From Desulfobacterales bacterium (GTDB lineage Bacteria; Desulfobacterota; Desulfobacteria; Desulfobacterales; C00003106), in NCBI GenBank assembly GCA_030613165.1, contig JAUWMN010000001.1, forward strand, positions 1 to 21,427: a stretch of 21,427 nt of DNA, in the 5' to 3' direction. The translations under genes and the position numbers were made by a program. The notes under the pieces were generated by a model. The model was given only the letters and a program-made list of their open reading frames with translations. It did no database searches and was not told where the DNA came from. Below are positions 1-19,760 of the stretch, piece by piece (the first letter of the stretch is position 1; the number at the start of each line of letters is the position of its first letter).

Positions 1-908
1 TCCAATTTTATCAGAATATCTCCGAAAAACTGTCTCTGGCCGATATCGACCTGTTCGATTATTCTTTGCACTTCGCCGGAAAGGGTCTCGGAGATCTTCG
101 CGTAAGAAAGGAACCCCTTTTTCGTCTTTGGATTGTATATCCTGTCAGTCAGATACTTCAGTCGAAAGCTCGAGACTTCACTTCCCAAATAGTTGGTCGC
201 GACATCCTCGATCAAATGGGCCTCATCAAATACAATAGCGTCATATTTCGGAAGCACGCGATAGCCGGAAGCGATGTTTGCAAAAAAGAGATGGTGGTTG
301 ATGACTAATATCTGCGCGTGTTGTGCCTTTTTCCGGGCATGCGTATAAAAGCATCGTTCAAAATAGGTACACTTTTTCCCCATGCAAAGCTCTGTCTGCC
401 GGCAGAGTTCATGCCACATGCCCGATGGAACTTCAAAGTCGAGTTCAGACCGTATGCCCTGTTTCGCGGTAACCGACCATTTGAGGATTCGGTCCAACGT
501 ACGGACCTGTTCCTTGCTGTCAAAGAGCCCCGCGTTTGCCGACCGATAAAGCCTCCTTAAACACAAATAGTTCTCACTCCCCATAAAAAGGGCGTACTGA
601 AAATCGATGCCAAGCACCTTTTCCAAAAAAGGGAGATCCTTTCGGACCAACTGCTCCTGGAGCGTTTTTGTGTAAGTGGAGACGACCACCTTTTTTTGCG
701 CATTTTTCGTCCATGCGATAAAGGGGATCAGATAGGCAAGACTCTTGCCCACGCCGGTGCCCGCTTCCACCACCAGGTGACGTTCGTTTTCAATTGCCAG
801 AGTTATCGCCTCTGCCATGGCGATCTGCTCATGGCGCACTTCGTACGACTCAAAGTGCTTTGAAAGGAGCCCGTCAGGGCCCATTATGGACTGGATGTTT
901 GGTTTCAT
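1..908 (-). CDS. dinG: DinG/XPD-type ATP-dependent helicase, N-terminal part (runs off left edge)
   Basis: An open frame runs without a stop from ATG at 908 to the left edge, giving 302 residues; the C-terminal half is outside the window. Superfamily 2 helicases of this type unwind DNA with 5'-3' polarity and carry an iron-sulfur cluster between the Walker motifs. Visible landmarks are Walker A EAGTGVGKS at residues 48-56, motif Ia STYTKTLQEQL at 77-87, the DEAH box VFDEAH at 226-231, and a cysteine group (C116, C169, C175, C180, C186), four of which would hold the cluster. INHHLFFAN at 203-211 is also typical. The start is chosen because MGPDGLL near residues 9-15 matches the usual N-terminus of the family; no strong Shine-Dalgarno is visible. 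It is separated from the cargo genes by 259 bp with repeats, so it is probably a neighbour and not part of the secretion locus. It could instead be a YoaA-like paralogue. Confidence 0.9.
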   Translation of the reverse strand, partial: MKPNIQSIMGPDGLLSKHFESYEVRHEQIAMAEAITLAIENERHLVVEAGTGVGKSLAYLIPFIAWTKNAQKKVVVSTYTKTLQEQLVRKDLPFLEKVLGIDFQYALFMGSENYLCLRRLYRSANAGLFDSKEQVRTLDRILKWSVTAKQGIRSELDFEVPSGMWHELCRQTELCMGKKCTYFERCFYTHARKKAQHAQILVINHHLFFANIASGYRVLPKYDAIVFDEAHLIEDVATNYLGSEVSSFRLKYLTDRIYNPKTKKGFLSYAKISETLSGEVQRIIEQVDIGQRQFFGDILIKL

Positions 909-969
909 TTCGTGGAAGGGTATCAAAAAAAGAGGGGTATGTAAATATGCCGGTTTTTAGGCAATGAAG

Positions 970-3716: not shown

Positions 3717-6359
3717 TTATTTGACGTCAAACACAAACCCCTCATCCCCCACTGACACCTTAACCTCTTCAATCTGCTCTCCGCTCGCCATCCTGCCAAG
3801 CAACTCTTTTGACATCTCCGGCAGCAAAGTATTAGTAAGAATATGGTCCACGTTTCTGGCGCCGCTGTCTACTTCGGTGCAGCGGCTTGCGATGGACTCG
3901 ATCACTTCTTCCTCATAGATGAAGGAGACATTTCTGTTTTCCAGCATACGCTTTGCAACACGATCCAATTTGAGTTTTACTATGAAGCGCATGTTCTTGT
4001 CCGTGATGGGAAAATAGGGAACGACCTTTAAACGCCCCAGAAAGGCGGGCTTGAACTGCTTCTGCAGCTCGGGTCTCAGCATTTCCGTGAGGGCCGGCGC
4101 GTCCGGCATGGTCTCTTCGTCGGCGCATACCTTCATGATTAGGTCAGTGCCCAAATTGGATGTCAGGATGATCAAGGTGTTCTTGAAATCGATTCGCCTG
4201 CCTTCGCCATCTTCCAGAGTCCCCTTGTCAAAGACCTGGTAAAAGAGTTCCATCACATCCGGGTGGGCCTTTTCAACCTCATCCAGGAGGACGACACTGT
4301 AAGGCTTCCTCCTGACTGCTTCGGTCAGGACTCCTCCTTCCCCGTATCCCACATATCCCGGAGGAGAACCTTTCAACCCTGATACTGTGTGCGCCTCCTG
4401 ATATTCCGACATGTTGATGGTTATCACATTCTCCTCGCCGCCGTACAGGAGTTCGGAAAGAGCCAGGGCTGTTTCGGTCTTTCCGACACCGCTCGGCCCT
4501 ACGAACATAAATACCGCTGTTGGTTTGGACGGATCGTCAATGCCTGCGTGAGCCGTCTGGATCATCTGGGCCACGGCCGCCAGGGCATAGTCCTGTCCTA
4601 TAATCCTTTCGCTTAATAAATCTGCCATGTTAAGGACGGTTTCGATCTCATCGGTCAGCATGCGCCCAGTGGGAATACCGGTCCACCCGGAAATCACCTC
4701 GGATATAATCTCAGGCTCGACAGCAATCTGGACCAGGGGAGAATCTGCCTGGGCCTCGGCAAGCTCTTTTTCCAGTTCTTTCAGTGTATCCTGCTTTTCG
4801 GATAACGCTTCTTTGTCTGAGGGATCCTTTTCATGGATCTCATGGACCTCCTTCCGGACATCAATGATGCGGTTGGCGATTTCCATTTCCTTTTGCCACT
4901 TTTGAGTCAGATCATCGAGGCGGGCCTGGGCTGCTTCCCTTTCTTCGGCAAGAGACTGGAGCCGCTCCCCGTGCTCACGGCCGATCAGCTCTTCCTTTTC
5001 GAGGATCTTCGTCTCCCTGTCGATCTGACCAATGCGTCGAGTGGCTTCTTCAACCGCAGGGGGGCTTGTATTCAGACCTATGGCCACCCTGGCGCAAGCC
5101 GTGTCCAGAACACTCACGGACTTGTCCGGAAGCTGTCTTCCTATAAGATAACGATGGGACAGACGGACCGCGTCAAGCAAGGCATCATCTGTTATCATGA
5201 CATTGTGGTGATGCTCAAGAAACGGAGCGATCGCCCGCATCATCATCAGGGCCTTTTCCTCTTCGGGTTCTTCGATTTTGACCACCTGAAACCGCCGGGC
5301 CAGGGCAGCGTCCTTTTCAAAGTACTTCTTGTATTCCGACCAAGTAGTTGCCGCGATAGTGCGCAATTCACCCCGGGCCAGAGCGGGTTTGAGCAGGTTG
5401 GCCGCGTCCCCCGATCCTGCGGAACCGCCCGCGCCTATGAGGGTGTGGGCTTCATCGATGAAAAGAATAATGGGAATGGGGGAGGCTTTGACCTCCTCGA
5501 TCACGGATTTGAGCCGGTCTTCGAACTCTCCCTTTATCCCTGCCCCGGCCTGCAAAAGACCCAGGTCGAGTGTGTGGATCGCCACGTTTTTTAACGGCGG
5601 AGGGATGTCTCCCTCCACAATCCTCAGGGCAAACCCTTCCACCACCGCAGTCTTGCCCCCACCGGCCTCTCCGGTCAGTATGGGATTGTTTTGCCTGCGC
5701 CGTATCAGGATATCCACCATCTGCCTGATCTCAAAGTCACGCCCAAGAACCGGGTCTATCTCTCCCTTTCGCGCTTTTTCGGTGAGGTTGATCGTATACT
5801 GAGCCAGGGCCTGTGCCTTTCCGCCCGGCATCCGCCGCCCTGCCGCATCTTCAGGCAGCGCCGGCTGGGCCGCGCCGGTCTCTTCAACAGACCCGGAAGT
5901 CAGCTCAACTAAATGCTCTTTTAAGCTCTCCACGGAGATCTTTTTAAAACTTTGCGAGCTTGCCGTCAGCATCCGGGCCATTTCATCGTTGCTCATAAGG
6001 GCAAGGAGAATGTGGCCTGACCGGATACTCGGAACCTGGAAATCAACCGAGGCGACCAACCATGCTTCCTGGACCATGCGGGGTATACGGGGAGAGAGGG
6101 CCGGGGTGCGGGCGTTGCCTGTCTTAAACGCCTCCATGGCACGGGTGAGATCGGCCGTCAAATGTGCCTCATTGATCTCAAAGTGCCTTAGTATCTTCTG
6201 AACATCAATGTTCGATATCTCGAGGAGTTTTATGAGAAAGTGTTCGATATCCACCTCATAATGGGTTTGAGATAGGCAAAGGCCGGCAGCCGACTCAAGA
6301 GCGTTTCGGCAGGTGTTGTTCAATTTTCCTATCAGGGATTTAAGGTTTGATACGGGCAT
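3717..6359 (-). CDS. tssH: T6SS sheath-disassembly AAA+ ATPase TssH (ClpV)
   Basis: ClpV is a cytoplasmic hexameric ATPase that strips contracted TssB/TssC sheath and returns it for reuse. The 880-residue length is normal. Domains in order are the Clp N-terminal repeat region (about 10-150), the first AAA module with Walker A GEAGGGKT (230-237) and Walker B IILFIDEAHTL (297-307), a coiled-coil middle domain (about 445-540), and the second AAA module with GPSGVGKT (621-628) and VVLLDEVEKAHP (689-700). The C-terminal region continues to the end. The first Walker A has Gly where Val is more common (GEAGVGKT), which keeps the essential Lys and Thr. The start at 6359 has AAGGAGAG seven bases upstream. 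The gap to tssG carries a heptamer tandem repeat. A housekeeping ClpB is excluded by the T6SS context and the short ClpV-type N-terminus. Confidence 0.95.
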   Translation of the reverse strand: MPVSNLKSLIGKLNNTCRNALESAAGLCLSQTHYEVDIEHFLIKLLEISNIDVQKILRHFEINEAHLTADLTRAMEAFKTGNARTPALSPRIPRMVQEAWLVASVDFQVPSIRSGHILLALMSNDEMARMLTASSQSFKKISVESLKEHLVELTSGSVEETGAAQPALPEDAAGRRMPGGKAQALAQYTINLTEKARKGEIDPVLGRDFEIRQMVDILIRRRQNNPILTGEAGGGKTAVVEGFALRIVEGDIPPPLKNVAIHTLDLGLLQAGAGIKGEFEDRLKSVIEEVKASPIPIILFIDEAHTLIGAGGSAGSGDAANLLKPALARGELRTIAATTWSEYKKYFEKDAALARRFQVVKIEEPEEEKALMMMRAIAPFLEHHHNVMITDDALLDAVRLSHRYLIGRQLPDKSVSVLDTACARVAIGLNTSPPAVEEATRRIGQIDRETKILEKEELIGREHGERLQSLAEEREAAQARLDDLTQKWQKEMEIANRIIDVRKEVHEIHEKDPSDKEALSEKQDTLKELEKELAEAQADSPLVQIAVEPEIISEVISGWTGIPTGRMLTDEIETVLNMADLLSERIIGQDYALAAVAQMIQTAHAGIDDPSKPTAVFMFVGPSGVGKTETALALSELLYGGEENVITINMSEYQEAHTVSGLKGSPPGYVGYGEGGVLTEAVRRKPYSVVLLDEVEKAHPDVMELFYQVFDKGTLEDGEGRRIDFKNTLIILTSNLGTDLIMKVCADEETMPDAPALTEMLRPELQKQFKPAFLGRLKVVPYFPITDKNMRFIVKLKLDRVAKRMLENRNVSFIYEEEVIESIASRCTEVDSGARNVDHILTNTLLPEMSKELLGRMASGEQIEEVKVSVGDEGFVFDVK

Positions 6360-6372: not shown

Positions 6373-6414
6373 GTTCAGGGTTCAGGGTTCAAGGTTCAAG
6401 GTTCAAGGTTCAAG
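6373..6414 (-). repeat. Six-unit heptamer tandem repeat between tssG and tssH
   Basis: Six 7-bp units lie head to tail on the plus strand, two reading GTTCAGG and four GTTCAAG. On the minus strand they are CCTGAAC and CTTGAAC. They cover the last codons and the TGA stop of tssG and end just before the clpV ribosome binding site. Each frame through the array meets a TGA within three units, so unit gain or loss would hardly change TssG but would change the tssG-tssH spacing. Confidence 0.9.
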
Positions 6415-7458
6415 GTTCTCACTTACTAAGATAAACAGCACGCTCGCTTCAAATGTCATGTAAGGATCCTCATGTAGCGTTACTTCCGGGGTCTTGACCC
6501 ACGTTGACCAGCCCAGCCTCGGCGAGGTCGGGGTTTCCACGCCTAATACACACGGTGGCACTTCTTCCCGCTTTAAAAAGAGACGAATCTCGAATTCGTA
6601 CTCAATCCCGACCATGTATCTCACTAAGGAGAAGAGGGGTTTGAGCAGGTCGCCGGTGGGCAAGAAACGAAGAAATTCATCGTAGCGCATCGGTCCCATC
6701 TTGATCCTGAATCGTGTTTGGCTTTCCCATGCATAGCTTCCACAAATCGTATCGATACCCAATTCCGCATTGGCCAGACCCAGTTGCGTTTGATCTTCCG
6801 GGCTCAGGGGAAACATGCGATCGATAAATTGCTCTACTTCTACCGTAGTGCCCGAAAAGTATTCTATTGCCGACTCAATAGCAACCGCGGATGGGACCTC
6901 CCTTGATAAAAGACCGGAGTAATGTGCCAGGCACTCCTCCGGCAACCCGAGCATCCCTACGAGTCCGGGAGTTCCCAGTCCCGTTAAGCTGAGCAGATAT
7001 CCGGACAGTCTGTCCCTGGCCCCGGGAAGATAATTCACGGGGAATTGGTGTTTCTTCCACGCAAGGTACAAAAGGGAAATAAGACGGTGATGGAACATGT
7101 CCAAAAAAGCGGTAAGGCTGAAATCCTTATTACGGACGCGCTCGATTGCCAGTTCATTATACCAGTACGGGAGGACACCTGATGGGCCGATCAGTCCCAT
7201 AAAGGTTACTTCCATGTCAACGGGACGTTCCTCATCCGTCTGCTCAATGTTCGCGATATCGCTCGGGGGAAAGCTGAAGCCGGGTTTTACCGAAAAGCGC
7301 ACTGCTTCTTCGCCCGGCACCAGCGTCTGTCCTAAACGCTTCTTGCCGGGAAAAAGAGACTCCAGTAGATCGACTGCCTTAAAAAAGGAAAAAGAGTACG
7401 ATTCCTTGAAAAGGCGGTCTTTCAGAGGAGTACCCGATTGCCGCTTCTGGGAGACCAC
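6403..7458 (-). CDS. tssG: T6SS baseplate wedge subunit TssG
   Basis: TssG (ImpH/VasB) sits with TssF, TssE and TssK in the baseplate wedge. Family landmarks are SYSFSFFKAVDLLE near the N-terminus, GLIGPSGVLPYWYNE in the first third, and FLDMFHHRLISLLYLAWKK soon after. From GTG 7458 the protein has 351 residues, the usual length. An upstream ATG at 7554 would add 32 residues unlike any TssG N-terminus and lie deep inside tssF. The GTG has AGAGG ten bases before it, and the frame from there reads VSQKRQSGTPLKDRLF, similar in layout to other TssG starts. The gene overlaps the end of tssF by 37 bp, implying coupled translation of the two wedge partners. The stop lies inside the heptamer array. 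Confidence 0.9.
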   Translation of the reverse strand: MVSQKRQSGTPLKDRLFKESYSFSFFKAVDLLESLFPGKKRLGQTLVPGEEAVRFSVKPGFSFPPSDIANIEQTDEERPVDMEVTFMGLIGPSGVLPYWYNELAIERVRNKDFSLTAFLDMFHHRLISLLYLAWKKHQFPVNYLPGARDRLSGYLLSLTGLGTPGLVGMLGLPEECLAHYSGLLSREVPSAVAIESAIEYFSGTTVEVEQFIDRMFPLSPEDQTQLGLANAELGIDTICGSYAWESQTRFRIKMGPMRYDEFLRFLPTGDLLKPLFSLVRYMVGIEYEFEIRLFLKREEVPPCVLGVETPTSPRLGWSTWVKTPEVTLHEDPYMTFEASVLFILVSENLEP

Positions 7459-9224
7459 TGTTTTAACGCCTCTTTGTTCTGTATAGTACGTGCAACCAAT
7501 TGGGAAAATGAATTGACGGAAACATACTGTCCTAAAAATCTCTCCAATACGCAAGCGAACAGGTAGAGACCTGTGCCCACAAACTTATTCTCGTCAAACT
7601 CTATGGTGACCTGGACGCCCCGGCAAAAGGACCGTCCGATTCTCTTTGTGACGTGTCGGGACTGAAGAGATACGATCCCGTTTATCTGCTGCCTGGTAGC
7701 AGGTGAATTGTCAAAATCATAAAGCGTAAGTATCTCCCTGAGCGCTTCTTCTCCTCCCTGCACGAGGGACATATAATTAAGTGACAGTTGCGATATCAAA
7801 CGCCACTGCAGTGTGCCGCCCAAAAAAGGCCTGCGGGTCGGCGTCGGTTTTATGAGGCTGTTTATGCGGGCAACAGGCGCGGCCGTTTCCATATCGAAAT
7901 CGCCTGCCGGGTCCCCGAAAGGAAGCCGCGCGGGCAGGTCGCGATTGGTGCACGTGGTATGGACCGTCACTATTTCCACCCCCGGATCAACCGGATTGAA
8001 ATCCAAGTCCGCAAAGGAGAGAAATACCTCTGACCCTTCATCCCCTTTCTTGCCCGAAGAACGCCGTTGGTTGTGCCAAAAAACCCGCCGGCCCCTGTCA
8101 TCTTCCTCTCCAAGATGGGGTCTTACGGAATAGAAGGGCCTAAGAACGACCTCTTTCCCCGGAGTAGTCGATAAGGCGGAAACCTTGTCTATGCTGAACA
8201 CTTCTGTTGCCCCCTGTCTTCTGATATCAGGGATGACACGATATTCGGTCTTTTGTTGTTCGACCCTAATCGGTTCGGCAATACGTTTGTACAGGTTGAC
8301 GGCAGGCGCGGCATTGAGGCAAAAGGTATCCTTGTTGATCACTATGTTCGATTTGGCGCTCCTGTTCAGGTAGATCCAGATATCCACGGTATCCGTAAGG
8401 TCCGCATGTTTCATGGCATCGAGACCCGTGAGATCAAAAAAGAGGAACTTCTCCGGAAAACAGAAGTATTCGAAAAGGAGAAGATAACCGGGAAAAGACC
8501 TTCGGGGATAGGGGAGCATACCCTCATCAGGGTTAAACCCTACAGGTCTTATGTCATCAGGGGTCAATGGTATCCCCGCTGTCACTCCGTGTTCCTTGAT
8601 AGACTCACATTCCACATGGCATACATTGTTGAACAAAAGTTCATAGAGATGAAAAACATGTTGGGAAGGGCCATTGAGGAAAAATCGCAGATGTTTCCAA
8701 CTAAGATCGGAAAGGGGCACGCCGTTATAGGTCTTCAATTGAATAACAATAGCCTGTTGTGCGCCTCGCACCGACATCTTTGGATCTCGAAGTCCTGCCG
8801 AGACCACCTCTACGGGCCAGAGCCGTGCGGGATAACATGTGGTGAACTCACACGGAGTCCCGCCGACGGGTTTGGAATAGAGGGTTGTATTCTTATCTAT
8901 TAGGTATCCGACCGGCGGTATATTCTGCTTTACCGGCTCGAACCTCACAATCGACATGGAAGGTATAGGATTGATGTAATGGGGGCAGATGATGCTGAGG
9001 AGTGATTGGGTTATTTCAGGGAAATCATCATCGATTTTTTTGTGTATTCGTCCGCTAAGAAACGCAAAGGCCTCTATGAGCCGTTCGGTATGGGGATCCT
9101 CGCATTTATCGGGCTCAAGCAGCAGCCTGCCGGCAATCTTGGGGTACTTCCGGGCAAATTCAGCCCCCATTTCTCGGATAAATGTTAGCTCTTGTTCATA
9201 ATAATGTAGTAGCTTGTCATCCAT
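7422..9224 (-). CDS. tssF: T6SS baseplate wedge subunit TssF
   Basis: TssF (ImpG/VasA) is the large wedge protein that pairs with TssG. The 600-residue length is typical. The N-terminus is diagnostic: LLHYYEQELTFIREMGAEFA and then KYPKIAGRLLL, with DPHTERLIEAFAFLSGRI and PEITQSLLSIICPHY further on. The start ATG 9224 lies 7 bp after the tssE stop and the 3' end overlaps tssG by 37 bp, so E-F-G form a tight wedge cassette. Nothing is missing or broken. Confidence 0.95.
   Translation of the reverse strand: MDDKLLHYYEQELTFIREMGAEFARKYPKIAGRLLLEPDKCEDPHTERLIEAFAFLSGRIHKKIDDDFPEITQSLLSIICPHYINPIPSMSIVRFEPVKQNIPPVGYLIDKNTTLYSKPVGGTPCEFTTCYPARLWPVEVVSAGLRDPKMSVRGAQQAIVIQLKTYNGVPLSDLSWKHLRFFLNGPSQHVFHLYELLFNNVCHVECESIKEHGVTAGIPLTPDDIRPVGFNPDEGMLPYPRRSFPGYLLLFEYFCFPEKFLFFDLTGLDAMKHADLTDTVDIWIYLNRSAKSNIVINKDTFCLNAAPAVNLYKRIAEPIRVEQQKTEYRVIPDIRRQGATEVFSIDKVSALSTTPGKEVVLRPFYSVRPHLGEEDDRGRRVFWHNQRRSSGKKGDEGSEVFLSFADLDFNPVDPGVEIVTVHTTCTNRDLPARLPFGDPAGDFDMETAAPVARINSLIKPTPTRRPFLGGTLQWRLISQLSLNYMSLVQGGEEALREILTLYDFDNSPATRQQINGIVSLQSRHVTKRIGRSFCRGVQVTIEFDENKFVGTGLYLFACVLERFLGQYVSVNSFSQLVARTIQNKEALKQWSPRSGNRVLL
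7469..7473 (-). promoter_or_regulatory. Ribosome binding site favouring the GTG start of tssG
   Basis: AGAGG on the minus strand lies ten bases before GTG 7458, inside the tssF coding region. The spacing is slightly long, so support for the start is moderate. Confidence 0.45.
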
Positions 9225-9231: not shown

Positions 9232-9708
9232 TCATTTTGAAATGATATATTCGCCCCTGCTCGCATCAAAATAGGTGTCAAAGGTGATAGGCTCTGACAT
9301 CGGTTCCACAACCAACATGCCGCTTATCCTGAACCTGATATTCCGCTCGTTTTGGGTCGGTGCCTCAAGATGTACCGTCACATTCTTTAACCTGGGTTCA
9401 AATCGTGCAATCGTTTTTTCCATGTCCTGGCGCAACTGCTGCTTTACCGATGGGCCTCTGGGATCTTGGGCGGTAAAATCTCGCAGGCCATAGACAAAAA
9501 GAGAGTTGTTCACCTGTCTGTATGCGACCGGAGGCGGCACTATGTGGCGCTTGGTATTAAGAAGGTTCTCCAAGTCCTTTACCACCGACGCCTTGATCTG
9601 TCCGATGTTGAGCAAGCCGTACCGGACAGGCTCGTGGGATACCCCGGGTTCATCATCCACAAGCCTGTCCAAGATGGATGCCTGTACATTGTGCCGGTTT
9701 TGCATCAT
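9232..9708 (-). CDS. tssE: T6SS baseplate wedge subunit TssE (gp25-like)
   Basis: TssE is the small baseplate protein related to phage T4 gp25, which helps nucleate sheath assembly. The protein begins ILDRLVDDEP within its first 25 residues and has RYGLLNIGQIKASVVKDLENLLNT, VYGLRDFTAQD and the C-terminal block RFRISGMLVVEP followed by ITFDTYFDASRG, all typical. The start is one of two consecutive ATGs (9708 or 9705); a TTG just before is also in frame. No strong ribosome binding site is seen. The start lies 20 bp after the hcp stop, and translation may depend on ribosomes from upstream. If so, the nonsense codon in hcp could reduce TssE through polarity. Length, 158 residues, is normal. Confidence 0.9.
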   Translation of the reverse strand: MMQNRHNVQASILDRLVDDEPGVSHEPVRYGLLNIGQIKASVVKDLENLLNTKRHIVPPPVAYRQVNNSLFVYGLRDFTAQDPRGPSVKQQLRQDMEKTIARFEPRLKNVTVHLEAPTQNERNIRFRISGMLVVEPMSEPITFDTYFDASRGEYIISK

Positions 9709-9728
9709 CAATTATAATCAAACAAGCA

Positions 9729-10217
9729 TCATATCGGTTTATTAGCCTGAAGATCCCAACCGGCCGGTACATTTCCCGCGCCGGCGCCGCCCTCACGCGC
9801 CTGCTTGATGTAATTCAAGTTGATCTTCCCGTAATTGAATGTAACTGACTCCGTAGCTTCGCCGCCGCCGCCACCACCGGTACTTACCGAACTGATAACA
9901 ACATTGTTCATTTTGTACTCCATGTATGTCAGTTTGTCACCTCCTGCACGGCAGAACTCAATCTTCACCTCTTTAATATGATTTCCTGTGGCGCACGCCT
10001 TAAACTACAACGGGGATGAACTGTCCAGAGTCTTTACAATGGAAATATCCTGGAAATCAGCCCGCTGCGATGTACCTCCGCCCGAAGTACTGGCCGACGC
10101 GGATGCCATTTGAGAGACCCCCCAACTATAGGAAAGTATCTCTATCCAGTCCTTGTGCTTGTCATCCGTGCTTTCTCCCTTTATCCCTTCGATTTTCAAA
10201 AAATTGTCAACTGCCAT
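9729..10217 (-). pseudogene. hcp: hcp (tssD) T6SS tube protein gene, interrupted by an in-frame TAG
   Basis: Hcp hexamers stack into the inner tube that is fired out of the cell. The frame from ATG 10217 to TGA 9729 would encode 162 positions, the right size. It has a strong leader (GGAGG nine bases upstream) and family features on both sides of the break: DNFLKIEGIKGES and WIEILSYSWG before, ACATGNHIKEVKIEFCRAGG and YMEYKMNNVVISSVS after. Codon 71 is TAG (10007-10005). Reading through gives SSPL*FKACATGNHI, where the family usually has SPxLxKACATG, so the stop stands where Leu is expected and one base change (TTG to TAG) explains it. A GTG at 9968 could restart translation, but with no properly spaced site and without the N-terminal half. 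Either this copy is dead, the stop is suppressed, or it is a sequencing error. Glycine-rich runs (GGGGGG) occur in the second half. Confidence 0.85.
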
Positions 10218-10294
10218 GATTTGTTCCCTCCTTCTAAATATGAATACAGGTTAAAACAAAAAATTAAGGAGAATTGCGATTGTTTATAAAACCG

Positions 10295-10310
10295 TCATTC
10301 TTAACTTTAG
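10295..10310 (-). repeat. 16-bp direct repeat, hcp side
   Basis: CTAAAGTTAAGAATGA on the minus strand. It is identical to 10466-10481, and the similarity extends about ten bases further with mismatches. The pair brackets the REP hairpin in the tssC-hcp gap. Confidence 0.75.
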
Positions 10311-10316
10311 TTTCAT

Positions 10317-10373: not shown

Positions 10374-10465
10374 TAAATTCATGCGGTTACAAAAATATAA
10401 TTTCAAAGGGGCGAAACCCAACAAATCATTCGGAAGGGTTTTCGTTCAGATTTTTTACAAAATCA

Positions 10466-10521: not shown

Positions 10522-12018
10522 CTACCCTTTCGCAGGCGGCGGCAACTCCGCGACCAACCGCAGAGAGACGGTCAATTCATCTAACTGGTAATGCGGTTTT
10601 AGAAAGGCCACAGCCCTATATACGCCCGGTTTCCCCGGGACTTCACTCACATCAACCCTTGCTTCACGCAAGGGGAACTTAGCCTTCATGTCCTGTCCGG
10701 CATTGTCATCCAAAAGCACATAGTTGCTAATCCACCGGTTCAAGAAATCTTCGGCATTTTTACGGCTCATGAAACTGCCAACCTTATCTCTCATCATGGA
10801 CTTCAGATAATGGGCAAACCTTGAGACAGCGAGGATATATTGAAGTTGGGAAGATAGTCTCGCGTTGGCACTGGCGGCATCCGAGTCATACGCCTTAGCC
10901 TTATTGGCTGTCTGGGTGCTAAAAAAGGCAGCGTAATCCGTCCCCTTGCAATGGACCAACGGAATAAGGCCGAGATCGGCAAGTTCCTTTTCTCGCCTGT
11001 CCGTGATGGCTATCTCCGTGGGGCACTTGAGCGCTACATCCCCCTCGTCTGTCTGAAATGTGTGGACCGGCAGACCTTCCACCAGGCCACCGCCTTCCAC
11101 GCCTCTAATGGCCGCGCACCAGTGGTACTTGGCAAAGGCATCGGTCAGACGGGTTCCAAGCGCGTATGCCGCATTGCCCCACAGGTACTTGCTATGGTCG
11201 GTGCCGTCCACCCCTTCCTCGTAGTTAAAGGCTTCGACAGGAACATTCTCCTGCCCGTAAGGAAGCCGCATCAGGATATGGGGAAGGGCCAGGGCCACAT
11301 ACCTGGAATCTTCCGAGTCGCGGAAGGACTTCCATTTGGCATATTCCACGCTCTGGAAGATCTTGGCCATGTCTCGTGGACCGCCAAGATCGGTGAAGCT
11401 GTCCATGTTAAACAGGTCGGGGGACGCGGCCGAAATAAACGGGGCGTGGGACGCGGCGGCCACTTCGGATATCTTTTCGAGAAGGGCCATATCCTGAGGA
11501 TGGTTACCGAACTCATAATCCCCTATCAAGGCGCCATAGGCTGACCCGCCAAACATGCCGAACTCCTCTTCATATATTTTCTTGAAAAGGGCCGACTGAT
11601 CAAATTCACTCGCCTTTTCCATGTCCTTGAGAAGGTCCTTTTTGGACACATTCATCACCCTGATCTTTAGCCCTTCTCCTGTTTCACTCTGCTGTATCAG
11701 GTAGCTCAATCCTCTCCAGGAAGCCTCAAGCTTTTGAAAATCAGGATGGTGCAAGACCTCGTTGAGCTGCGTGGAAATCAGTTTGTCGATCTGGCTGATC
11801 CTGGCGTTGATCATGGCTTCCGTGTCCTTAGAGACCACCATGGTCCCTTCCATGACCTGGCCGACAAACTCGGCAATTACATCTTTTGCCCATCCTTTTT
11901 GACTTTCTTCACGGGCCATCCGGCCTTCTTCCAGGATCTGGTCTAAGACGCTTTTTTCTTCTTGAACTTCTTCGGCCTGAGCAGACTCCGGTTGGACTTG
12001 TTTTTCATTTTCAGCCAT
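10522..12018 (-). CDS. tssC: T6SS contractile sheath large subunit TssC
   Basis: TssC (VipB/ImpC, EvpB family) builds the contractile sheath with TssB. The 498-residue length is normal. Landmarks are KLEASWRGLSYLI (97-109), FGMFGGSAYGALIGDYEF, PRDMAKIFQSVEYAKWKSFRDS (in two parts here), VALALPHILMRLPYG, and the acidic, Gln-rich N-terminal extension that ClpV and TssB partners contact. The start ATG 12018 has AGGAG eight bases upstream and follows tssB by 12 bp. The gene ends with TAG; readthrough would add only five residues before TAA. After it comes a 304-bp repeat-rich gap before hcp, so hcp may have its own promoter, although I cannot point to one. Confidence 0.96.
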   Translation of the reverse strand: MAENEKQVQPESAQAEEVQEEKSVLDQILEEGRMAREESQKGWAKDVIAEFVGQVMEGTMVVSKDTEAMINARISQIDKLISTQLNEVLHHPDFQKLEASWRGLSYLIQQSETGEGLKIRVMNVSKKDLLKDMEKASEFDQSALFKKIYEEEFGMFGGSAYGALIGDYEFGNHPQDMALLEKISEVAAASHAPFISAASPDLFNMDSFTDLGGPRDMAKIFQSVEYAKWKSFRDSEDSRYVALALPHILMRLPYGQENVPVEAFNYEEGVDGTDHSKYLWGNAAYALGTRLTDAFAKYHWCAAIRGVEGGGLVEGLPVHTFQTDEGDVALKCPTEIAITDRREKELADLGLIPLVHCKGTDYAAFFSTQTANKAKAYDSDAASANARLSSQLQYILAVSRFAHYLKSMMRDKVGSFMSRKNAEDFLNRWISNYVLLDDNAGQDMKAKFPLREARVDVSEVPGKPGVYRAVAFLKPHYQLDELTVSLRLVAELPPPAKG

Positions 12019-12030: not shown

Positions 12031-12555
12031 CTATTCTTTATCTTTTTCTTCTGATTTTTCTACACCGACCTCACCCCCGAGTTTTTGTAAGGAGTCAGTG
12101 CTTGTAATGACATCCTGAAGCAGTTCATCCAGTTTGTCATTGCCGTCCAATTTGTTGAGCAGCTCTGAAAGCTTGCCTCTCGCCTCTACCAATTTGCGCA
12201 CCGGGGTTACCTGCTTAGCCACCTGTTCCGGATGGAAATCGTCCATAGATTTAAAACGGAGTTCCACCGCCATTTTAGTATTTTCATCCGTCAGTTTGTT
12301 ATCCACCTTAAAGGCCAGCCTCGGTTTCATGCCCTCAAGCACGCCATTAAAATTGTCCCGATCTATTTCAATGAATTTTCTGTCTTTCAGCTTTGGAAGT
12401 GGTTCATCCGGATTGCCTGATAGATCTCCGAGTACCCCGACCACAAAAGGGATCTCTTTCATTTCAATAGCATCACCGATCTCTACATCGTACGTTATCT
12501 GGACCCTGGGGGCCCTCACACTATCGAGGGTATGCTGTAAGCTCTCTTTGGCCAT
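12031..12555 (-). CDS. tssB: T6SS contractile sheath small subunit TssB
   Basis: TssB (VipA/ImpB) pairs with TssC to form sheath protomers. The 174-residue protein has the family signature RAPRVQITYDVEIGDA near the N-terminus and then EIPFVVGVLGDLSG, FIEIDRDNFNGVLEGMKPRL and VELRFKSMDDFHPEQVAKQV. The start ATG 12555 has AAAGGAGAG six bases upstream. The tail is charged (SEEKDKE). Nothing is unusual. Confidence 0.96.
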   Translation of the reverse strand: MAKESLQHTLDSVRAPRVQITYDVEIGDAIEMKEIPFVVGVLGDLSGNPDEPLPKLKDRKFIEIDRDNFNGVLEGMKPRLAFKVDNKLTDENTKMAVELRFKSMDDFHPEQVAKQVTPVRKLVEARGKLSELLNKLDGNDKLDELLQDVITSTDSLQKLGGEVGVEKSEEKDKE

Positions 12556-12615: not shown

Positions 12616-13935
12616 CTAAATTCTGTAACTCATCGCCTTTGTAACATCCGTGGTGCAGAGTCTCTGCAACAGCACCCTTGCCCTGCCGATATCGTCATCA
12701 GTCGGCTCTCCTGTTGTCAGGCATTTATAGAGGGTATCGAGTACCTCCGCAATCCACACAGGGGATTCCCAGCGCTCCAGTTGCAACTCCTCGATTAATG
12801 TGTTCAACTTCTCCGCGATCGGTCTGGCCAGGTCCGGTCTGTCGGCCCTCAGACAGAGTTTAGCCATAAGGAGCTGGTAGCGATTCTTTTCTCTCACGGA
12901 TGGTGCGCTGCAAGAAGCGTTAAAAAGCTGTCCCAGAGCCTTTTTAATGCCGGACGTCTTAAGTTTAGCAAGCGCGTCTTTCCACATGGCCTTTTCAAGG
13001 GACCCGGAATCTGAAACCCGGCCTGCCGGAAACGGCAGGACACCCTCGATCGAGGCGCCTTCCTCCTCTTCCACCTCATTGCCTTCCGCAGCCGCAACTT
13101 CTTCTGTTGCCGGCTCAGTCTCCTCGGCAGGTTCGAGATCCTTTTTCTCCTTGAAGATTTTCATAACGGGCCGGGCACACTCCTTAAGGGCTTCTCTCAA
13201 TTCCGCGAGTCTGGGGGCATCCGAGCCGAATTTTTCATCCACCGTCTCATCGAATCTCTTGAATTCTTCCAGGCATGCGGTCAGGTCTTCCGCCATGGAC
13301 TCGTAGTATGCTTTTGACGAACGAGCTGCGGCAGTGTCAAAATCCTCGCCGGTTATCTTGCCTTCGGCTATCGCATCAGCGCGAGCTTGCTTTTTATTTT
13401 CATCCACATCGCCGTATTGGTTCCGTGTATCGGCATCATAGCCCACCTGCCTCGACTCTTGCCATTGTAACCATGAATACCCTGGTGTTACACCATCGTC
13501 GGTCAATGGGGCCTGCTTCACGGCAAGCCAGAGCTTCTCATTCATGAACTCAATCGGGCCAACCCTAAAATCGAGGTCCCCATCCTCTACCTCCGGATAA
13601 ACATGCTCCCAGTAATCTCTCAAGAAGCCGGTAAGTATCTTAAGGCCCATGGCAAGTCCGCTAAAACCTTCGAGATGAACTAATGCTTCCGTAAGCCACG
13701 CGGCTATCTGCAAGTCTTTAGTCTTTTTGGTAAGAGCCTCAACAGAGGCAGTGATTGCCGCATCCCAGTCCGAGGTTTTGACTTCACGCTGCCAATCTCC
13801 TTGGTCAAGCAGGTCGTCAGATCTCCGTGCTTCCTTAATCTGATCATAAACCGGGCTGTAGCGAAGGTCCTCGCCTGCCGGATTATCGCCCGGAATCGGG
13901 GCCAATATGGCCTCTATGTCAATCTCTCGTTTCAT
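12616..13935 (-). CDS. tssA: T6SS assembly protein TssA (ImpA N-terminal domain type)
   Basis: TssA primes the baseplate and then caps the growing sheath and tube. The 439-residue protein opens with the ImpA domain (IEAILAPIPGDNPAGEDLRYSPVYDQIKEARR), followed by WDAAITASVEALTKKTKDLQIAAWLTEAL. An acidic linker (many Glu, about 280-305) separates it from a helical C-terminal part with ALAKLKTSGIKKALGQLF and REKNRYQLLMAKLCLRADRPDLA, which resembles the VasJ-like C-terminus of the short TssA class. That class usually caps the distal end without a separate TagA anchor; this is inference from domain layout. The start overlaps the 3' end of tagJ by 17 bp, suggesting translational coupling. Confidence 0.92.
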   Translation of the reverse strand: MKREIDIEAILAPIPGDNPAGEDLRYSPVYDQIKEARRSDDLLDQGDWQREVKTSDWDAAITASVEALTKKTKDLQIAAWLTEALVHLEGFSGLAMGLKILTGFLRDYWEHVYPEVEDGDLDFRVGPIEFMNEKLWLAVKQAPLTDDGVTPGYSWLQWQESRQVGYDADTRNQYGDVDENKKQARADAIAEGKITGEDFDTAAARSSKAYYESMAEDLTACLEEFKRFDETVDEKFGSDAPRLAELREALKECARPVMKIFKEKKDLEPAEETEPATEEVAAAEGNEVEEEEGASIEGVLPFPAGRVSDSGSLEKAMWKDALAKLKTSGIKKALGQLFNASCSAPSVREKNRYQLLMAKLCLRADRPDLARPIAEKLNTLIEELQLERWESPVWIAEVLDTLYKCLTTGEPTDDDIGRARVLLQRLCTTDVTKAMSYRI

Positions 13936-14740
13936 TACTCTCTTCTAACTCAGGGGAATTAAATAACGCCTCCCGGATCTCCAGGATGCCCATGTCCTCT
14001 TCACCGACCTGAAAAACATGTTGGCCGATGCCTTTTGCAAAGGACCCTCCAAGGGAGGTCCAGTCAGTCATTCTGCCAAGCTTCATCCGGTCGTCCTCGT
14101 GGAGAAATGAATCCGCATAGAGCACAGGAAGGTAACAGTTCACAGTGAGTCCGTCCCATGTGGTTATCCGGGCTGTAATCCAGAGGAGATCAAACAGCGT
14201 CTTGGGAGCCGAAACAGCAAGTTCTCTAATTGCCTCAAAAGGTATCCATACATACCGCTCATGGACAATCGTTTCGAGGAAAATGGACAGAAATGTGTCC
14301 GTGTCTTTAAAACCGGTAAAGCTCTTTCCATTTACTGTCCCGGATATGACGGGGCGCTTAGCATCTACTTGATCGAAAAGCGCCTTTGCCTCATCGATCT
14401 TTTGTTCACTTAGCTTTGCCCAGGCTGCGCAGTATGTTTCAAGATAGGGTGGAGTTTCCGGCAGAAATGAGGGGCGACGTTTGAGCTTGTAAACGTCCGT
14501 CCGCTCTCTCTCCGCGTGGATCAAGTTTTTGTAAACCTGGACTCCGACCTCGGCAGCTACATCCTGCGCGCCGATCGCGTCAAGATGCCGTTCGGCCTTG
14601 TCCCATTCACCGCAAAAAGCTAAGACTTGAAACAGAAGTATACGCCTGCCGCTATCACCGGGCTTCGCCTTGACTTCCCCGGTGAGCTGCTCGCGTGCCT
14701 CTGACAGTCTGCCCGCTCTGATAAGATCTTTTGCATCCAT
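13919..14740 (-). CDS. tagJ: T6SS accessory protein TagJ (ImpE family)
   Basis: ImpE/TagJ proteins bind the sheath subunit TssB and, in Pseudomonas HSI-I, the ClpV N-domain, and tune sheath recycling. The 273-residue protein starts with a TPR-like helical repeat region (DLIRAGRLSEAREQLTGEVK, LLFQVLAFCGEWDKAERHLDA). It then carries the ImpE core: ISGTVNGKSFTGFKDTDTFL, WIPFEAIRELAVSAPKTLFDLLW, VLYADSFLHEDDRMKLGRMTDW. The start at 14740 has GAGGG ten bases upstream. It lies 129 bp after tagF and overlaps tssA, placing it at the head of the sheath genes. Family assignment is firm; the exact mechanism here is inferred. Confidence 0.88.
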   Translation of the reverse strand: MDAKDLIRAGRLSEAREQLTGEVKAKPGDSGRRILLFQVLAFCGEWDKAERHLDAIGAQDVAAEVGVQVYKNLIHAERERTDVYKLKRRPSFLPETPPYLETYCAAWAKLSEQKIDEAKALFDQVDAKRPVISGTVNGKSFTGFKDTDTFLSIFLETIVHERYVWIPFEAIRELAVSAPKTLFDLLWITARITTWDGLTVNCYLPVLYADSFLHEDDRMKLGRMTDWTSLGGSFAKGIGQHVFQVGEEDMGILEIREALFNSPELEESNETRD

Positions 14741-14868: not shown

Positions 14869-15621
14869 TCAACCGGGGTTCGAGACCGCGGACCAGAGCC
14901 TAACAAAATCGGTTGGAACCAATGACCGTTTAAAGACAGCCAAATACGTCCTCTCGGGGACCCCGCCCATAAAGATCGCGTTCGGGGCGCCGGCCAGGCG
15001 AGCCTTCAAAAGAGAATGCCACAAAATCGCCAGCGAAAATACGTCACCGGACGGTCCGTGCTCGAACGGGACAAGGAACTCTGTCTTCTTTGACAGGCGG
15101 TCAATTGTCTCTGAAATCTCCCTGGAATCCCTCGCTAATAACGACGAACGCGCCTTTTGATCGTTAAACTCCGACCAGTTGGGGGAGGGCGGTTTTATGA
15201 TACGGACATCGTCCTCTAACTGTTTAAAATTGGCAAGCCGCCGTGTGCTCAGGTATTCTATTTGACTCCAGGTCTTTTCACAGGCAAGGGGCAAAAGGTC
15301 CCAGTAGTCCTCCCACCTTTCAAGAGGTCCGGTTCCCATAATAAGAAGGGGATATGGCCGGCCGATGCTGTCACTGCTATCCCTTCCAACACCACATATA
15401 AGGTTGTCTTTCTTGGCCCCTTGGGCCCAAAAGCGCCATGCATAGGGCTGAGAGGCAGGGTTCTGTTTTGATCTCAGCAATTGATAACCTTTTTCAACCC
15501 AACCAACAAACGCCTTTATCAAGGGCGCGTCTTCGCCCGCCCTAAAATAGTCCCTGGCCACTGGATGCTTGCCGTAAGCCGCCCAATGCCAATATTGTGC
15601 TCCTCTTCCTAATCCCAACAC
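14869..15621 (-). CDS. tagF: T6SS-associated regulator TagF
   Basis: TagF represses T6SS activity after translation; in Pseudomonas and Agrobacterium it acts at or near the Fha protein, and the Ppk/Ppp phosphorylation pathway opposes it or bypasses it. The 250-residue protein has the TagF opening AAYGKHPVARDYFRAG (the family's FGKLPxxGDF variant), then WRFWAQG, IGRPYPLLIMGTG (the conserved pocket region) and WEDYWDLL. The likely start is GTG 15621, overlapping the tssM end by 13 bp; no ATG lies near. No fha, ppkA or pppA gene is in the window, so the partners must be elsewhere or absent. Confidence 0.85.
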   Translation of the reverse strand: MLGLGRGAQYWHWAAYGKHPVARDYFRAGEDAPLIKAFVGWVEKGYQLLRSKQNPASQPYAWRFWAQGAKKDNLICGVGRDSSDSIGRPYPLLIMGTGPLERWEDYWDLLPLACEKTWSQIEYLSTRRLANFKQLEDDVRIIKPPSPNWSEFNDQKARSSLLARDSREISETIDRLSKKTEFLVPFEHGPSGDVFSLAILWHSLLKARLAGAPNAIFMGGVPERTYLAVFKRSLVPTDFVRLWSAVSNPG

Positions 15622-18600
15622 TTTGCGATATTTCCCGGAACCGTTCTTGGTATCCTAAGCAACTTAAGGGCCGGTTTGTGCCCACTGAATCGATATTCCA
15701 CGTTGATGTATTTGATCCCTAACCGTTTTAACGCGGACTGCTGTTTAGGAAATTCACGTCTGTAAAATGTGCGCTTCCCACTCTTGAAATCGTTCAAGAA
15801 TTTCGCGAAGCCAAGGTATCCTCTGTACTTCTTAATGAGAGTCAGGTCGCCTACCTCGATGCGCAACTCCACATCTTCGCAACTGTCAGGCGACCAGTCA
15901 AAGGTTTTGCTGCGACGAAACTGAAGATTCACGAGACTTTGGGTAGACCCGACGCATTCAAGTTCAAGGCGTGTGGCGTGTGGCTGTACCCGGGCCTTGG
16001 AATTGGCGCTTGTCGGTTTTGTCTGGATGCTCACCTTGTAATTACGTTTGCGTGCCTGCTTCGCTACCGTCCCCTTGGTCAAAAAGGACAAAAACGCGGG
16101 ATCAAAGGGTATCCTCCCGCCCAAGGCCTTAGTTGCGTAATATCCTTTTCGGCGATTCCAGTCTATAAACTGCGCGGCCGGACCTTTCAGAAAATTCCAG
16201 GCGTGACCATCTTGACCCAGGACCTGCTGCACGGCAGCCGCACCGGCAACCCCTTGAATCTCCGCCATAACCGTTTTTCTCCATTGCTCCTGGAGATGGC
16301 AGGCAGTCTCTGTACGCACAAGGGTCCATAAGTAGTCAAGTGGGCCGGCTACCATCGCCCAGAACATCTTATGTTCCGGACTACCGGCCCCCATGGCGCT
16401 CTTGAGGTTGGCGACAGCCGTGTGAGCAACGTGAACAGGGACCTTGCTCGTTGCCGGGTCTTCGCCATAGGTCTTGACTGCCGTCTCATATGCCGCTTTT
16501 CTCGAAGCTGATATAGACGCAATCTCTCTTAAGCTTGTTTCATAGTCCAGATAGGCCTTGGCAGCCTTTATTTGTTGTTCGAGACTCCTTGCGTCACCGG
16601 TTTTACTCTCAATCGTGCTGATAAACTTTATCCCCTTTTGGGTTGCCTTTGCCAGCAGTCCCTTCCCTTTTATGGCCGCTTGCTTGGCTGCTTGAGCCCT
16701 TGTGGTCTGAAATTCGTAAATCGGCTTTGCCCACGACGGTATCTCCTCTCCCGCCAGCGCTTCAACCTCCGAAGCCGTTCTGTTCAGAAGGGAAAAGTAT
16801 GGCCCTTCATCGGTCGGCATTTTGGCCGCCATGCTCTGCCACTCTTCTCTCCCCTTAAGCCGTTCAACGCCCTTCGCAAAGGTAGTTCCAAAATCGTGCC
16901 AGGCGTCAAGAGAGGTCTTTCGATACCATTCGTTAAATTCCAACTTTTGGCGGGCAATAATCGGAGGCCCGGGATCGGGAACCGCCGATTCGATCTCCTT
17001 AATAAAGGATTCTATTTCTTGCTTTCCCCTACTCGTAAAGGCCGGAACCACCGCGGGTTCACCCTCCACCGGCAGACCTCCTCCCCAAAACTCCTCGAGG
17101 TTTACCGGTGAAAGGGACTTCTGACCATTGGCCCAGGTAACGAGCCAATGAAGATCTGCCCCTTTTATGGTCAGTATCTTTTTCAACCACGGTTGGAGGA
17201 GGGTGATCTCCTGGTTGATTTTGGCGGAATCTACGCTCCAATCCAAGTAGTACAGGTATAAATTGCGAAACTTGTCGGAAATTTCAGGAATAATACCCCT
17301 CTCAACCATGAGCATAAGAGGTTCAAAGGATGGCTGCGGTTTCGTTTTAAGATCCTCAAGCTCTTGACCATCTAAACGTGCCTTCAAAAGATTGATCCGT
17401 CTGACAAGATGAGCTATGTAGTGACCTATGACATAATCGGGGGTGGAATGGGAAAAATGTGCCATTCTGGCTGTCATCTCTTCATCCAGGGAGACCAAAA
17501 AGCCTGTGTGAAACTGTTTCCAGTACTTCTCCTTGAGCTCAATCTCGACATCTTTGCTTTCACCCAACCCAAACCTCGGGATCCACCACCCCTCATTCTG
17601 GTCCTCCACCTTAAGGATGCCATGGAGAAACCGATCCATAATAACCACATCCGTCAGGACCTCTCCTTGCAACACGGGAGGCGTTGAAAATTCATGGGAG
17701 ATCTCCCTTAAGGTTTGCATATTCTTAACAAAGGAAAAGCTCAGGAGACCGCAAATGGCGACCCCAAGGGCAACCCAGGCCGTCAATCCGAGACTTTTGG
17801 TTAGTCGGTTCCATTCAAGGGCCCGCTGGGTGGGCGCAATCAATTTTCTGTCCTTGGGGAGAATCCGGGCAAAAAAGTCGTGAAGGAAGAGTCCCTTGTT
17901 TGTTCCCGCGAGGACTTCCTTTTCTTCAATGAGTCCGAGTTCCTTTAAAAAGTGGGAGTAAGGACTTCCCTCCTGGCGTCCACTGCTAAAGAACAGCCCC
18001 CGCAAAAGCGGGGTCTCCTGGTAAGGATTTTCCTCGAAGGCCCCCTTAATGAACGACCTGAGTCCTTCTTTCACACTTTCAAACTCTTCAGGGAAGAGAA
18101 GAAGACCCGGATCAGTAGTCTCGGAGCCGGATTCATGCATAAGGAGAAGTCGAAAATCCCGTAACCGATCGACCAAAGTGTTTACCGTCTGCGCTTGAAA
18201 CGCGTCCGCATCTGCCGAGAGATCATGTTTTATGGCCCCCATAGCCTGATCAAGGGTTTTCTCGGGAAGCCTGTCGCAGAATTGCGTCATCCCCTGAATG
18301 AGATCACACTTGGTAACCAGGATATAGACGGGTGGCTTTGTCCCCAACACCCGCATTAATTCATCGATCCGGCGGCGAATGGTGCGACCATCCTCTGCCA
18401 AGGCCTCGGGCCCGGCCTCAAGCAATTTATCGGCCGCGATGCTTACGATCAGACCATTGAGGGGCTCTTTTTTTCTGTATTTGGCCAAGAGATTGAGAAA
18501 CTTTTGCCATTCATCCTTGTCCCGTCCTTCATCTATCGGGATGGCATACCTTCCCGCGGTATCAAGAATAATAGCCTGTTCAAAAAACCACCAATCACAG

Positions 18601-19079
18601 TTCCGTGTCCCGGAAATCCCCGAGGTCTGACCAAGCTCCGCGAAGGAGGAGGAAAGACGGGCGCTCTTAATAGCGGTCGTTTTACCTGAACCGCTCTCGC
18701 CAATCACCAGGTACCACGGAAGTACATAGAGGGGGTTGCCATATTTTCTCAAATGGGAGCGCCTCAAGGCCTCCACAGCCTCCGTCCAACGATCCTGCAC
18801 CTCACGTACGTGTCCTCTCTCCTTTGCCGCAAGGCTTTTCACATAGGACTCATCCTGAGCTACGACCTGCTGTACAAAGAGCTGCTCTTGACGCTTCAGC
18901 CATATCTTCCGAAGGGCTATGAACGCAATACCCAGACCTACAAGTCCCAACAGGATGAAAAAGCTTACCCACCATGGCCAATCAAGGATCAAGACGATCC
19001 CAAAAAGGAGGAAGATCGCTAAAGCAACTATAGCGAGAATCAGAACGACCTTAGACATCTTTGAAAAAATCTGCTTCAT
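15609..19079 (-). CDS. tssM: T6SS inner-membrane complex protein TssM (IcmF)
   Basis: TssM spans the periplasm and links TssL in the inner membrane to the TssJ lipoprotein in the outer membrane. The 1156-residue protein has two N-terminal membrane helices (about 10-31 and 38-57) and a cytoplasmic NTPase-like domain with Walker A GESGSGKTT (127-135), ILDTAGRY (171-178) and TKCD (256-259). A third membrane helix lies at about 431-451, followed by a long helical periplasmic part with the ImcF-related region and a beta-rich C-terminal domain (VELRIEVGDL and following). Walker A is intact, unlike in many TssM proteins where it is lost, so ATP binding is plausible. ATG 19079 touches the tssL stop directly (TAG then ATG). 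Confidence 0.96.
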   Translation of the reverse strand: MKQIFSKMSKVVLILAIVALAIFLLFGIVLILDWPWWVSFFILLGLVGLGIAFIALRKIWLKRQEQLFVQQVVAQDESYVKSLAAKERGHVREVQDRWTEAVEALRRSHLRKYGNPLYVLPWYLVIGESGSGKTTAIKSARLSSSFAELGQTSGISGTRNCDWWFFEQAIILDTAGRYAIPIDEGRDKDEWQKFLNLLAKYRKKEPLNGLIVSIAADKLLEAGPEALAEDGRTIRRRIDELMRVLGTKPPVYILVTKCDLIQGMTQFCDRLPEKTLDQAMGAIKHDLSADADAFQAQTVNTLVDRLRDFRLLLMHESGSETTDPGLLLFPEEFESVKEGLRSFIKGAFEENPYQETPLLRGLFFSSGRQEGSPYSHFLKELGLIEEKEVLAGTNKGLFLHDFFARILPKDRKLIAPTQRALEWNRLTKSLGLTAWVALGVAICGLLSFSFVKNMQTLREISHEFSTPPVLQGEVLTDVVIMDRFLHGILKVEDQNEGWWIPRFGLGESKDVEIELKEKYWKQFHTGFLVSLDEEMTARMAHFSHSTPDYVIGHYIAHLVRRINLLKARLDGQELEDLKTKPQPSFEPLMLMVERGIIPEISDKFRNLYLYYLDWSVDSAKINQEITLLQPWLKKILTIKGADLHWLVTWANGQKSLSPVNLEEFWGGGLPVEGEPAVVPAFTSRGKQEIESFIKEIESAVPDPGPPIIARQKLEFNEWYRKTSLDAWHDFGTTFAKGVERLKGREEWQSMAAKMPTDEGPYFSLLNRTASEVEALAGEEIPSWAKPIYEFQTTRAQAAKQAAIKGKGLLAKATQKGIKFISTIESKTGDARSLEQQIKAAKAYLDYETSLREIASISASRKAAYETAVKTYGEDPATSKVPVHVAHTAVANLKSAMGAGSPEHKMFWAMVAGPLDYLWTLVRTETACHLQEQWRKTVMAEIQGVAGAAAVQQVLGQDGHAWNFLKGPAAQFIDWNRRKGYYATKALGGRIPFDPAFLSFLTKGTVAKQARKRNYKVSIQTKPTSANSKARVQPHATRLELECVGSTQSLVNLQFRRSKTFDWSPDSCEDVELRIEVGDLTLIKKYRGYLGFAKFLNDFKSGKRTFYRREFPKQQSALKRLGIKYINVEYRFSGHKPALKLLRIPRTVPGNIAKCWD

Positions 19080-19760
19080 CTACGGCACCATACTGAGAAA
19101 ATTTTCCCCTATTCCGTTCAAAATAAAGGCATAAATTATATAAAGCACTATGAAAAGGACAACCGGCCCTCCAAGGCAAATAAGCGTAAAGGGAGTGAGA
19201 CTGAACTTCTCTGTCGGCGCGGCGACCTCACCCGGCTCGGACGGATACGCTTCCGGAAAGATGTCGGTGCGTTCAAGCGAAGGGAGTCCTACTGAACTCC
19301 CTATGAGGAGTTTCAAGTTCGATGTCTTTACCTGATCGAGGAGAAACTTGTCTCCTTCACTGCAATATCTCCCCATGAAACCAAGGGCGAGACAAAGATA
19401 ATAGACCTCTCTCACATCGCGCTGATGCGGCCCCAGAGCATTTAAGCGCGAAAAAAACACTTCACCGGCATCGGCAATATTGTAATAGAACCGCTGTAGC
19501 TGTTCTCTCTGCCACTGATCTTTTGCATTCCACCCAGAGTTCAGAATGGCCTCATCAACCCAAGCACAAACCGCAAACCGTGCCAGATCATAATCATCTT
19601 GGGGGAAAAGTCCTCCCTTGAGACACTCTTCACTCTTTGACAGGAGACGGCGGATATCCGCCTTTACCTGTTCATACGGAGGTTGTTTTTGGGCCACGGT
19701 TTTCAGAAAATAGACCACATAGGCTATAACTCCCACAAAGCAATCGCTTAAGCGCACCAT
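19080..19760 (-). CDS. tssL: T6SS inner-membrane complex protein TssL (DotU type, no peptidoglycan-binding domain)
   Basis: TssL anchors the baseplate to the membrane complex. The 226-residue protein has the DotU hook domain (YEQVKADIRRLLSKSEECL, FAVCAWVDEAILNSGW, REVYYLCLALGFMGRY) and a single C-terminal membrane helix at about 189-214. Only about 12 residues follow the helix, so the OmpA-like peptidoglycan-binding domain found in longer TssL proteins is absent. Anchoring to the cell wall would need a separate protein (TagL/TagN/TagP type), none of which is seen here. The start ATG 19760 is 1 bp after the tssK stop, with GGGGAGG in the tssK end as its ribosome binding site. Confidence 0.94.
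   Translation of the reverse strand: MVRLSDCFVGVIAYVVYFLKTVAQKQPPYEQVKADIRRLLSKSEECLKGGLFPQDDYDLARFAVCAWVDEAILNSGWNAKDQWQREQLQRFYYNIADAGEVFFSRLNALGPHQRDVREVYYLCLALGFMGRYCSEGDKFLLDQVKTSNLKLLIGSSVGLPSLERTDIFPEAYPSEPGEVAAPTEKFSLTPFTLICLGGPVVLFIVLYIIYAFILNGIGENFLSMVP

What the first reader, a model, noticed from the sequence alone, without database searches (positions are those of the whole stretch)
9729..10217. Amber stop inside the T6SS tube gene hcp, otherwise intact frame
The sequence shows ...TCA TCC CCG TTG TAG TTT AAG... in frame at codon 71, with Hcp-like sequence resuming immediately (FKACATGNHIKE). All other positions of the 162-codon frame are open. Hcp is essential for T6SS firing, so either this locus is silenced, another hcp copy supplies tubes, the stop is suppressed, or the base is wrong. 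A single TTG to TAG change explains it, which points to a recent event. The neighbouring structural genes look intact.
Basis: partly seen in the sequence, partly recalled or inferred. Interest (0 to 1): 0.72.

Follow-up and report, generated by a model that had tools for sequence, protein, structure and literature searches.

The report
Stop codon in secretion tube gene
In one incompletely assembled bacterial genome, the gene for the tube of a contact-dependent secretion machine carries a single stop codon not seen at that place in relatives; it looks like a fresh loss-of-function change or an assembly error, and not a new way of reading the code.

Summary
Window 10217-9729 (-) is an hcp (tssD) frame of 162 codons plus TGA, with one in-frame TAG at codon 71 (10007-10005), inside a T6SS cluster whose other genes match their families. 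The column is Leu/Ile/Met in the 120 listed of 1653 homologues and Leu/Ile in 102 of 102 aligned DNA stretches from 109 loci. The stop was seen nowhere else: one contig carries the 70-aa product, and none of 109 other hcp matches in the 291 order genomes searched has a TAG. Recoding is unlikely: TAG ends six other window frames, five of them T6SS genes, no PylS passes the cut-off in this genus, and no CUA anticodon was found, though the genomes are incomplete. The sequence past the stop is still conserved, so the change is recent or an assembly error; no reads were available to decide. The cluster looks horizontally acquired, beside a helicase gene shared with three congeners in which no Hcp, TssC or VgrG was found. 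Ordinary; low interest.

The parts
9729..10217 (-). hcp (tssD), T6SS tube protein gene, 162 codons + TGA, interrupted at codon 71
10005..10007 (-). in-frame TAG, codon 71 of hcp; column is Leu/Ile/Met in relatives
9232..9711 (-). tssE, baseplate gp25-like, directly downstream of hcp
10522..12018 (-). tssC, sheath, ends in TAG
12031..12555 (-). tssB, sheath, ends in TAG
12616..13935 (-). tssA-like (ImpA_N), ends in TAG
13919..14740 (-). ImpE/TagJ-like
14869..15621 (-). tagF-like (TagF_N)
15609..19079 (-). tssM (IcmF), one open frame of 1156 aa, ends in TAG; only its N-terminal half matches the family models
19080..19760 (-). tssL (DotU), ends in TAG
19762..21150 (-). tssK
21151..21426 (-). tssJ, cut by the contig end
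7422..9224 (-). tssF
6403..7554 (-). tssG (true start may lie further in)
3717..6359 (-). tssH (ClpV-like AAA+)
3..926 (-). start of a DEAD-box helicase gene shared with three congeners (92, 91 and 74% identity); marks the edge of the T6SS island

Best explanation
A recent single-base nonsense change truncates Hcp to 70 of 162 residues. Without the second half of the barrel no tube ring can form (inferred from the known Hcp fold), so this T6SS cannot fire unless another hcp exists in the unassembled third of the genome. The rest of the cluster has not visibly decayed. Shown: the stop, its uniqueness in the searches made, the conserved flanking sequence, and TAG as an ordinary terminator here. 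Inferred: that the base is real in the cells, and that the system is off.
For: TAG at codon 71. Leu/Ile/Met at this column in 120 of 120 listed homologues, the best of 1653 found, and Leu/Ile in 102 of 102 aligned DNA stretches from 109 loci, with no stop in any. No second hcp in G000. TAG terminates six other window frames, tssC, tssB, tssA, tssM and tssL among them, and 30 of 130 long frames that reach a stop in 40 own contigs plus the window. All 43 columns conserved at 95% or more in the 120 homologues are kept. Against L103, dS is 0.307 before the stop and 0.312 after, dN 0.054 and 0.066.
Against: No reads, so the base itself is unverified. No second assembly of this species was found, but the protein database shows only cluster representatives at 90% identity, so one could be hidden. 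The other T6SS genes match their families, and a VgrG lies on contig C246, which a long-dead system would hardly keep; this favours a very recent change or an error.
Confidence: 0.52

Rival explanations
1. Assembly or consensus error, or a rare strain variant picked by the assembler: the population's hcp is intact and the T6SS works.
For: The genome is a fragmented, 67%-complete assembly of 286 contigs. The stop is a singleton in the collections searched. No conserved column past the stop is lost, and the other T6SS genes match their families.
Against: A scan of 40 own contigs plus the window (245 kb before the window is added) gave no clear interrupted gene, but it is insensitive: it also missed hcp, and two of the four candidates checked stay open.
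Confidence: 0.4
2. The stop is real, but a second hcp elsewhere in the genome supplies tubes and this copy is redundant.
For: A third of the genome is missing. Some order relatives carry several hcp matches, for example 10 in G043, one of them interrupted by TGA. VgrG lies on another contig. This can hold together with the best explanation.
Against: One hcp match only in G000, so none on the VgrG contig C246.
Confidence: 0.15
3. TAG is decoded (pyrrolysine or an amber suppressor), so full-length Hcp is made.
For: PylS over the cut-off in 4 of the 40 genomes searched, all 4 outside the genus. Genetic code expansion with pyrrolysine is reported in marine Deltaproteobacteria (PMC8318568, passages seen).
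Against: No PylS over the cut-off in G000 or its three congeners, which are 67, 80, 77 and 84% complete. No CUA anticodon at 19 of the 20 tRNA matches of G000; the twentieth, cut by a contig end, got no call. None at 30 of 83 congener matches looked at. TAG ends five other T6SS genes of this cluster. The column is a conserved aliphatic residue. No RNA family reaches its gathering score in the window.
Confidence: 0.03

Closest known systems
Hcp/TssD (Pfam PF05638, TIGR03344)
   Same: Sequence, length and gene position between tssC and tssE; 91% identity to the nearest listed homologue. An intact homologue, P0003, matches solved Hcp structures such as 1y12 (the window's own frame was not searched there)
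   Different: Stop at codon 71
T6SS-disabling mutations in classical Vibrio cholerae (PMC8578542, passages seen)
   Different: There the stop is in vasK and classical alleles were tested in another strain; here it is in hcp and untested
Citrobacter rodentium tssM1 transcriptional frameshifting (PMC4256274, abstract and outline seen)
   Same: T6SS gene with a premature stop
   Different: Rescue there uses a run of 11 adenosines before the stop; no such run lies here and the frame is unchanged after the stop
Pyrrolysine UAG decoding in marine Deltaproteobacteria (PMC8318568, passages seen)
   Same: In-frame TAG in a bacterium; some order relatives of the host carry PylS
   Different: No PylS found in this genus; hydrophobic column; TAG is a terminator here

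Membership tests
Hcp/TssD tube protein | Profile match over the full family model | tested here: met
   PF05638, 160 bits, positions 1-129, with one TAG inside
Hcp/TssD tube protein | Encoded within a T6SS cluster | tested here: met
   tssA-C, E-H and J-M around it
Hcp/TssD tube protein | Uninterrupted frame able to give a ring-forming product | tested here: not met
   TAG at codon 71
Pyrrolysine-containing protein | PylS in the genome | tested here: not met
   None over the cut-off in G000 (67% complete) or three congeners (80, 77, 84%)
Pyrrolysine-containing protein | tRNA with CUA anticodon | tested here: inconclusive
   None at 19 of 20 G000 matches (one got no call) and at 30 of 83 congener matches; genomes incomplete
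Pyrrolysine-containing protein | TAG conserved at the position in homologues | tested here: not met
   0 of 102 aligned DNA stretches; 0 of 109 other hcp matches, some partial, carry an internal TAG
Pseudogene by nonsense mutation | Base confirmed by reads or a second assembly | not testable with these tools
   No reads; no second assembly found

The most novel reading that the evidence does not exclude
The amber codon is a real, maintained site of low-level readthrough that limits the supply of Hcp and so sets how often this T6SS fires.
Probability: 0.02. Interest if true: 0.7.

Novelty: new member of a known kind. Interest (0 to 1): 0.12.

Why it matters
If real, it is a snapshot of a T6SS, probably acquired horizontally, at the first step of being switched off, in an unnamed lineage whose three sampled congeners show no such system. 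If an error, it is a reminder to check reads before calling a secretion system dead. Neither outcome changes how T6SS or the genetic code is understood.

Tried and rejected
Pyrrolysine or amber suppression: judged unlikely from TAG use, lack of PylS and the conserved aliphatic column. RNA element for recoding: no Rfam family at gathering score in the window; one sub-threshold miRNA match at 10342-10429 is taken as chance. Frameshift or slippage: the frame is the same on both sides of the stop and no long homopolymer lies there. Mis-binned contig: base composition is odd, but the helicase at the contig's edge is 92, 91 and 74% identical to that of three congeners, so this is unlikely; a contig wrongly joined near position 975 is not excluded. 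Old pseudogene: no loss at 43 of 43 conserved columns and similar dN on both sides. A relative-rate count gave more window-unique changes past the stop (4-9, against 1-4 in relatives, over 12 non-independent comparisons) than before it (0-5 against 0-2); this hints at some relaxation but is too weak to date the change. Plasmid search with window 9000-10600: no match. Literature: two searches on hcp with a premature stop or nonsense mutation found 32 and 3 papers (listings of 20 and 3 seen), two others found 1 and 9. Four papers were opened in part. I make no claim that such a case is absent from print.

Full report
Observation. The minus-strand frame 10217-9729 starts with ATG behind a good ribosome-binding site, runs 162 codons to TGA, and holds one internal stop, TAG at codon 71 (10007-10005). 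Pfam T6SS_HCP matches along positions 1-129 with 160 bits and one TAG inside. The two pieces match TIGR03344 in consecutive ranges.

Surroundings. The window is the whole of contig C110 of G000, a genome of 1.77 Mb in 286 contigs, 67% complete (its length of 21427 is the longest contig listed for the window's own proteins). From high to low coordinates it holds tssJ (cut), tssK, tssL, tssM, tagF, tagJ/impE, tssA, tssB, tssC, hcp, tssE, tssF, tssG and tssH, then two frames without Pfam or NCBIfam match and the start of a helicase gene. Of 16 frames checked only hcp has an internal stop, but the other 15 were chosen as open frames, so their family matches are the real evidence. A VgrG gene lies on contig C246 without an internal stop.

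Relatives. In the best 120 of 1653 homologues the column is Leu in 105, Ile in 14 and Met in 1; such a list of predicted proteins of near-full length cannot itself show stops. In 102 aligned DNA stretches from 109 loci the column is Leu in 62 and Ile in 40, and no aligned stretch holds a stop. A search with the first piece alone found 45 proteins; the 70-residue product occurs only on the window's contig, the other 44 are 88% identical or less, and when placed on an intact relative none of them ends at residue 70; one, P0140, aligns to residue 71 and ends two residues later. In 291 genomes drawn from the order, 71 have hcp matches, 110 in all by my count of the rows; four carry an internal stop: the window's TAG, one TGA, and two TAA in partial matches. 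The protein database is clustered at 90% identity, so a full-length copy from the same species could hide inside a cluster. For TssE the nearest other listed protein is 95% identical.

Recoding test. TAG ends six other window frames: tssA, tssB, tssC, tssL, tssM and 1168-2280. In 40 sampled own contigs plus the window, 158 stop-to-stop frames of 250 codons or more, a few of which may be spurious, end in TAA 51, TGA 49, TAG 30, and 28 run off the end. PylS passes its cut-off in 4 of 40 genomes searched, none of them among the four of this genus. ARAGORN gives an anticodon for 19 of the 20 tRNA matches of G000 and for the 30 of 83 congener matches looked at; none is CUA. A suppressor would also have to read past the ends of five T6SS proteins of the same cluster. 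Recoding is therefore unlikely, though incomplete genomes leave a small chance.

Age of the change. All 43 columns conserved at 95% or more are kept in the window; 71 of the 120 homologues also keep them all. Against L103, a Deltaproteobacteria MAG whose record title carries the label EthSRB1, dS is 0.307 before and 0.312 after the stop and dN 0.054 and 0.066. A relative-rate count gives a weak excess of changes in the second piece, which is against a pure assembly error but not significant evidence. The change is recent on this scale, or not real.

Real or error. A scan for same-frame interruptions in 40 own contigs (245 kb, 5.4 kb of it N) plus the window gave seven candidates. Three have a start codon within the first two codons after the stop and were set aside. 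Of the other four, two are plainly pairs of different genes (acetolactate synthase small subunit and ketol-acid reductoisomerase; PIN and nitroreductase); two have different domains on the two sides, one side weak (response regulator and STAS; histidine kinase and PilZ), and could still be interrupted genes. The scan missed hcp itself, so it is insensitive and says little on the error rate. I lean slightly to a real nonsense change (0.52) over an error or minor variant (0.40); this is a judgement, and reads would settle it.

Origin of the cluster. Window 1 to about 946-975 matches three congeners at 91, 90 and 75% DNA identity, and the match ends just upstream of the helicase start. The three congeners do not match each other in DNA upstream of the helicase either; frames were listed for two of them and differ. 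No Hcp, TssC or VgrG was found in the three congeners. Window GC is 0.498, against 0.453 for 38 of 40 own contigs, highest 0.480, and its tetranucleotide correlation to the own sample is 0.825, against 0.81-0.965 for the single own contigs, the longer ones being at the upper end. This fits a T6SS island acquired at a variable site; loss or non-assembly in three incomplete congeners, or a wrong join, is possible.

Known cases. Disabled T6SS structural genes are known, for example a premature stop in vasK of classical V. cholerae (PMC8578542, passages). A rescued premature stop is known in C. rodentium tssM1, through a run of 11 adenosines (PMC4256274, abstract and outline), which has no counterpart here. 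[quoted passage not shown] whether the host here is such an organism was not determined.

Noticed in passing
window 926-1168: Sharp edge of the T6SS island: identity to three congeners stops at about 946-975, just upstream of the helicase start, and the congeners do not match each other there, so this may be a variable insertion site.
   Followed up: partly
window 1168-2280 and 2655-3620 (-): Two frames between the helicase and tssH without Pfam or NCBIfam match, in lower-GC DNA; the second ends in a cysteine-rich stretch. Possible cargo or accessory genes of the T6SS.
   Followed up: no
L190 (G000 contig C246) 1974-5695: VgrG of 713 aa followed by two further frames, GC about 0.50 like the window, so possibly part of the same acquired island.
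   Followed up: partly
window 15609-19079 (-): TssM is a single open frame of 1156 aa, but only its N-terminal half matches family models and it stays below the NCBIfam cut-off.
   Followed up: no
L052-L055 (genomes G004, G010, G038, G009): PylS matches over the cut-off in 4 of 40 genomes searched, all outside this genus, so TAG readings in this order need care.
   Followed up: no
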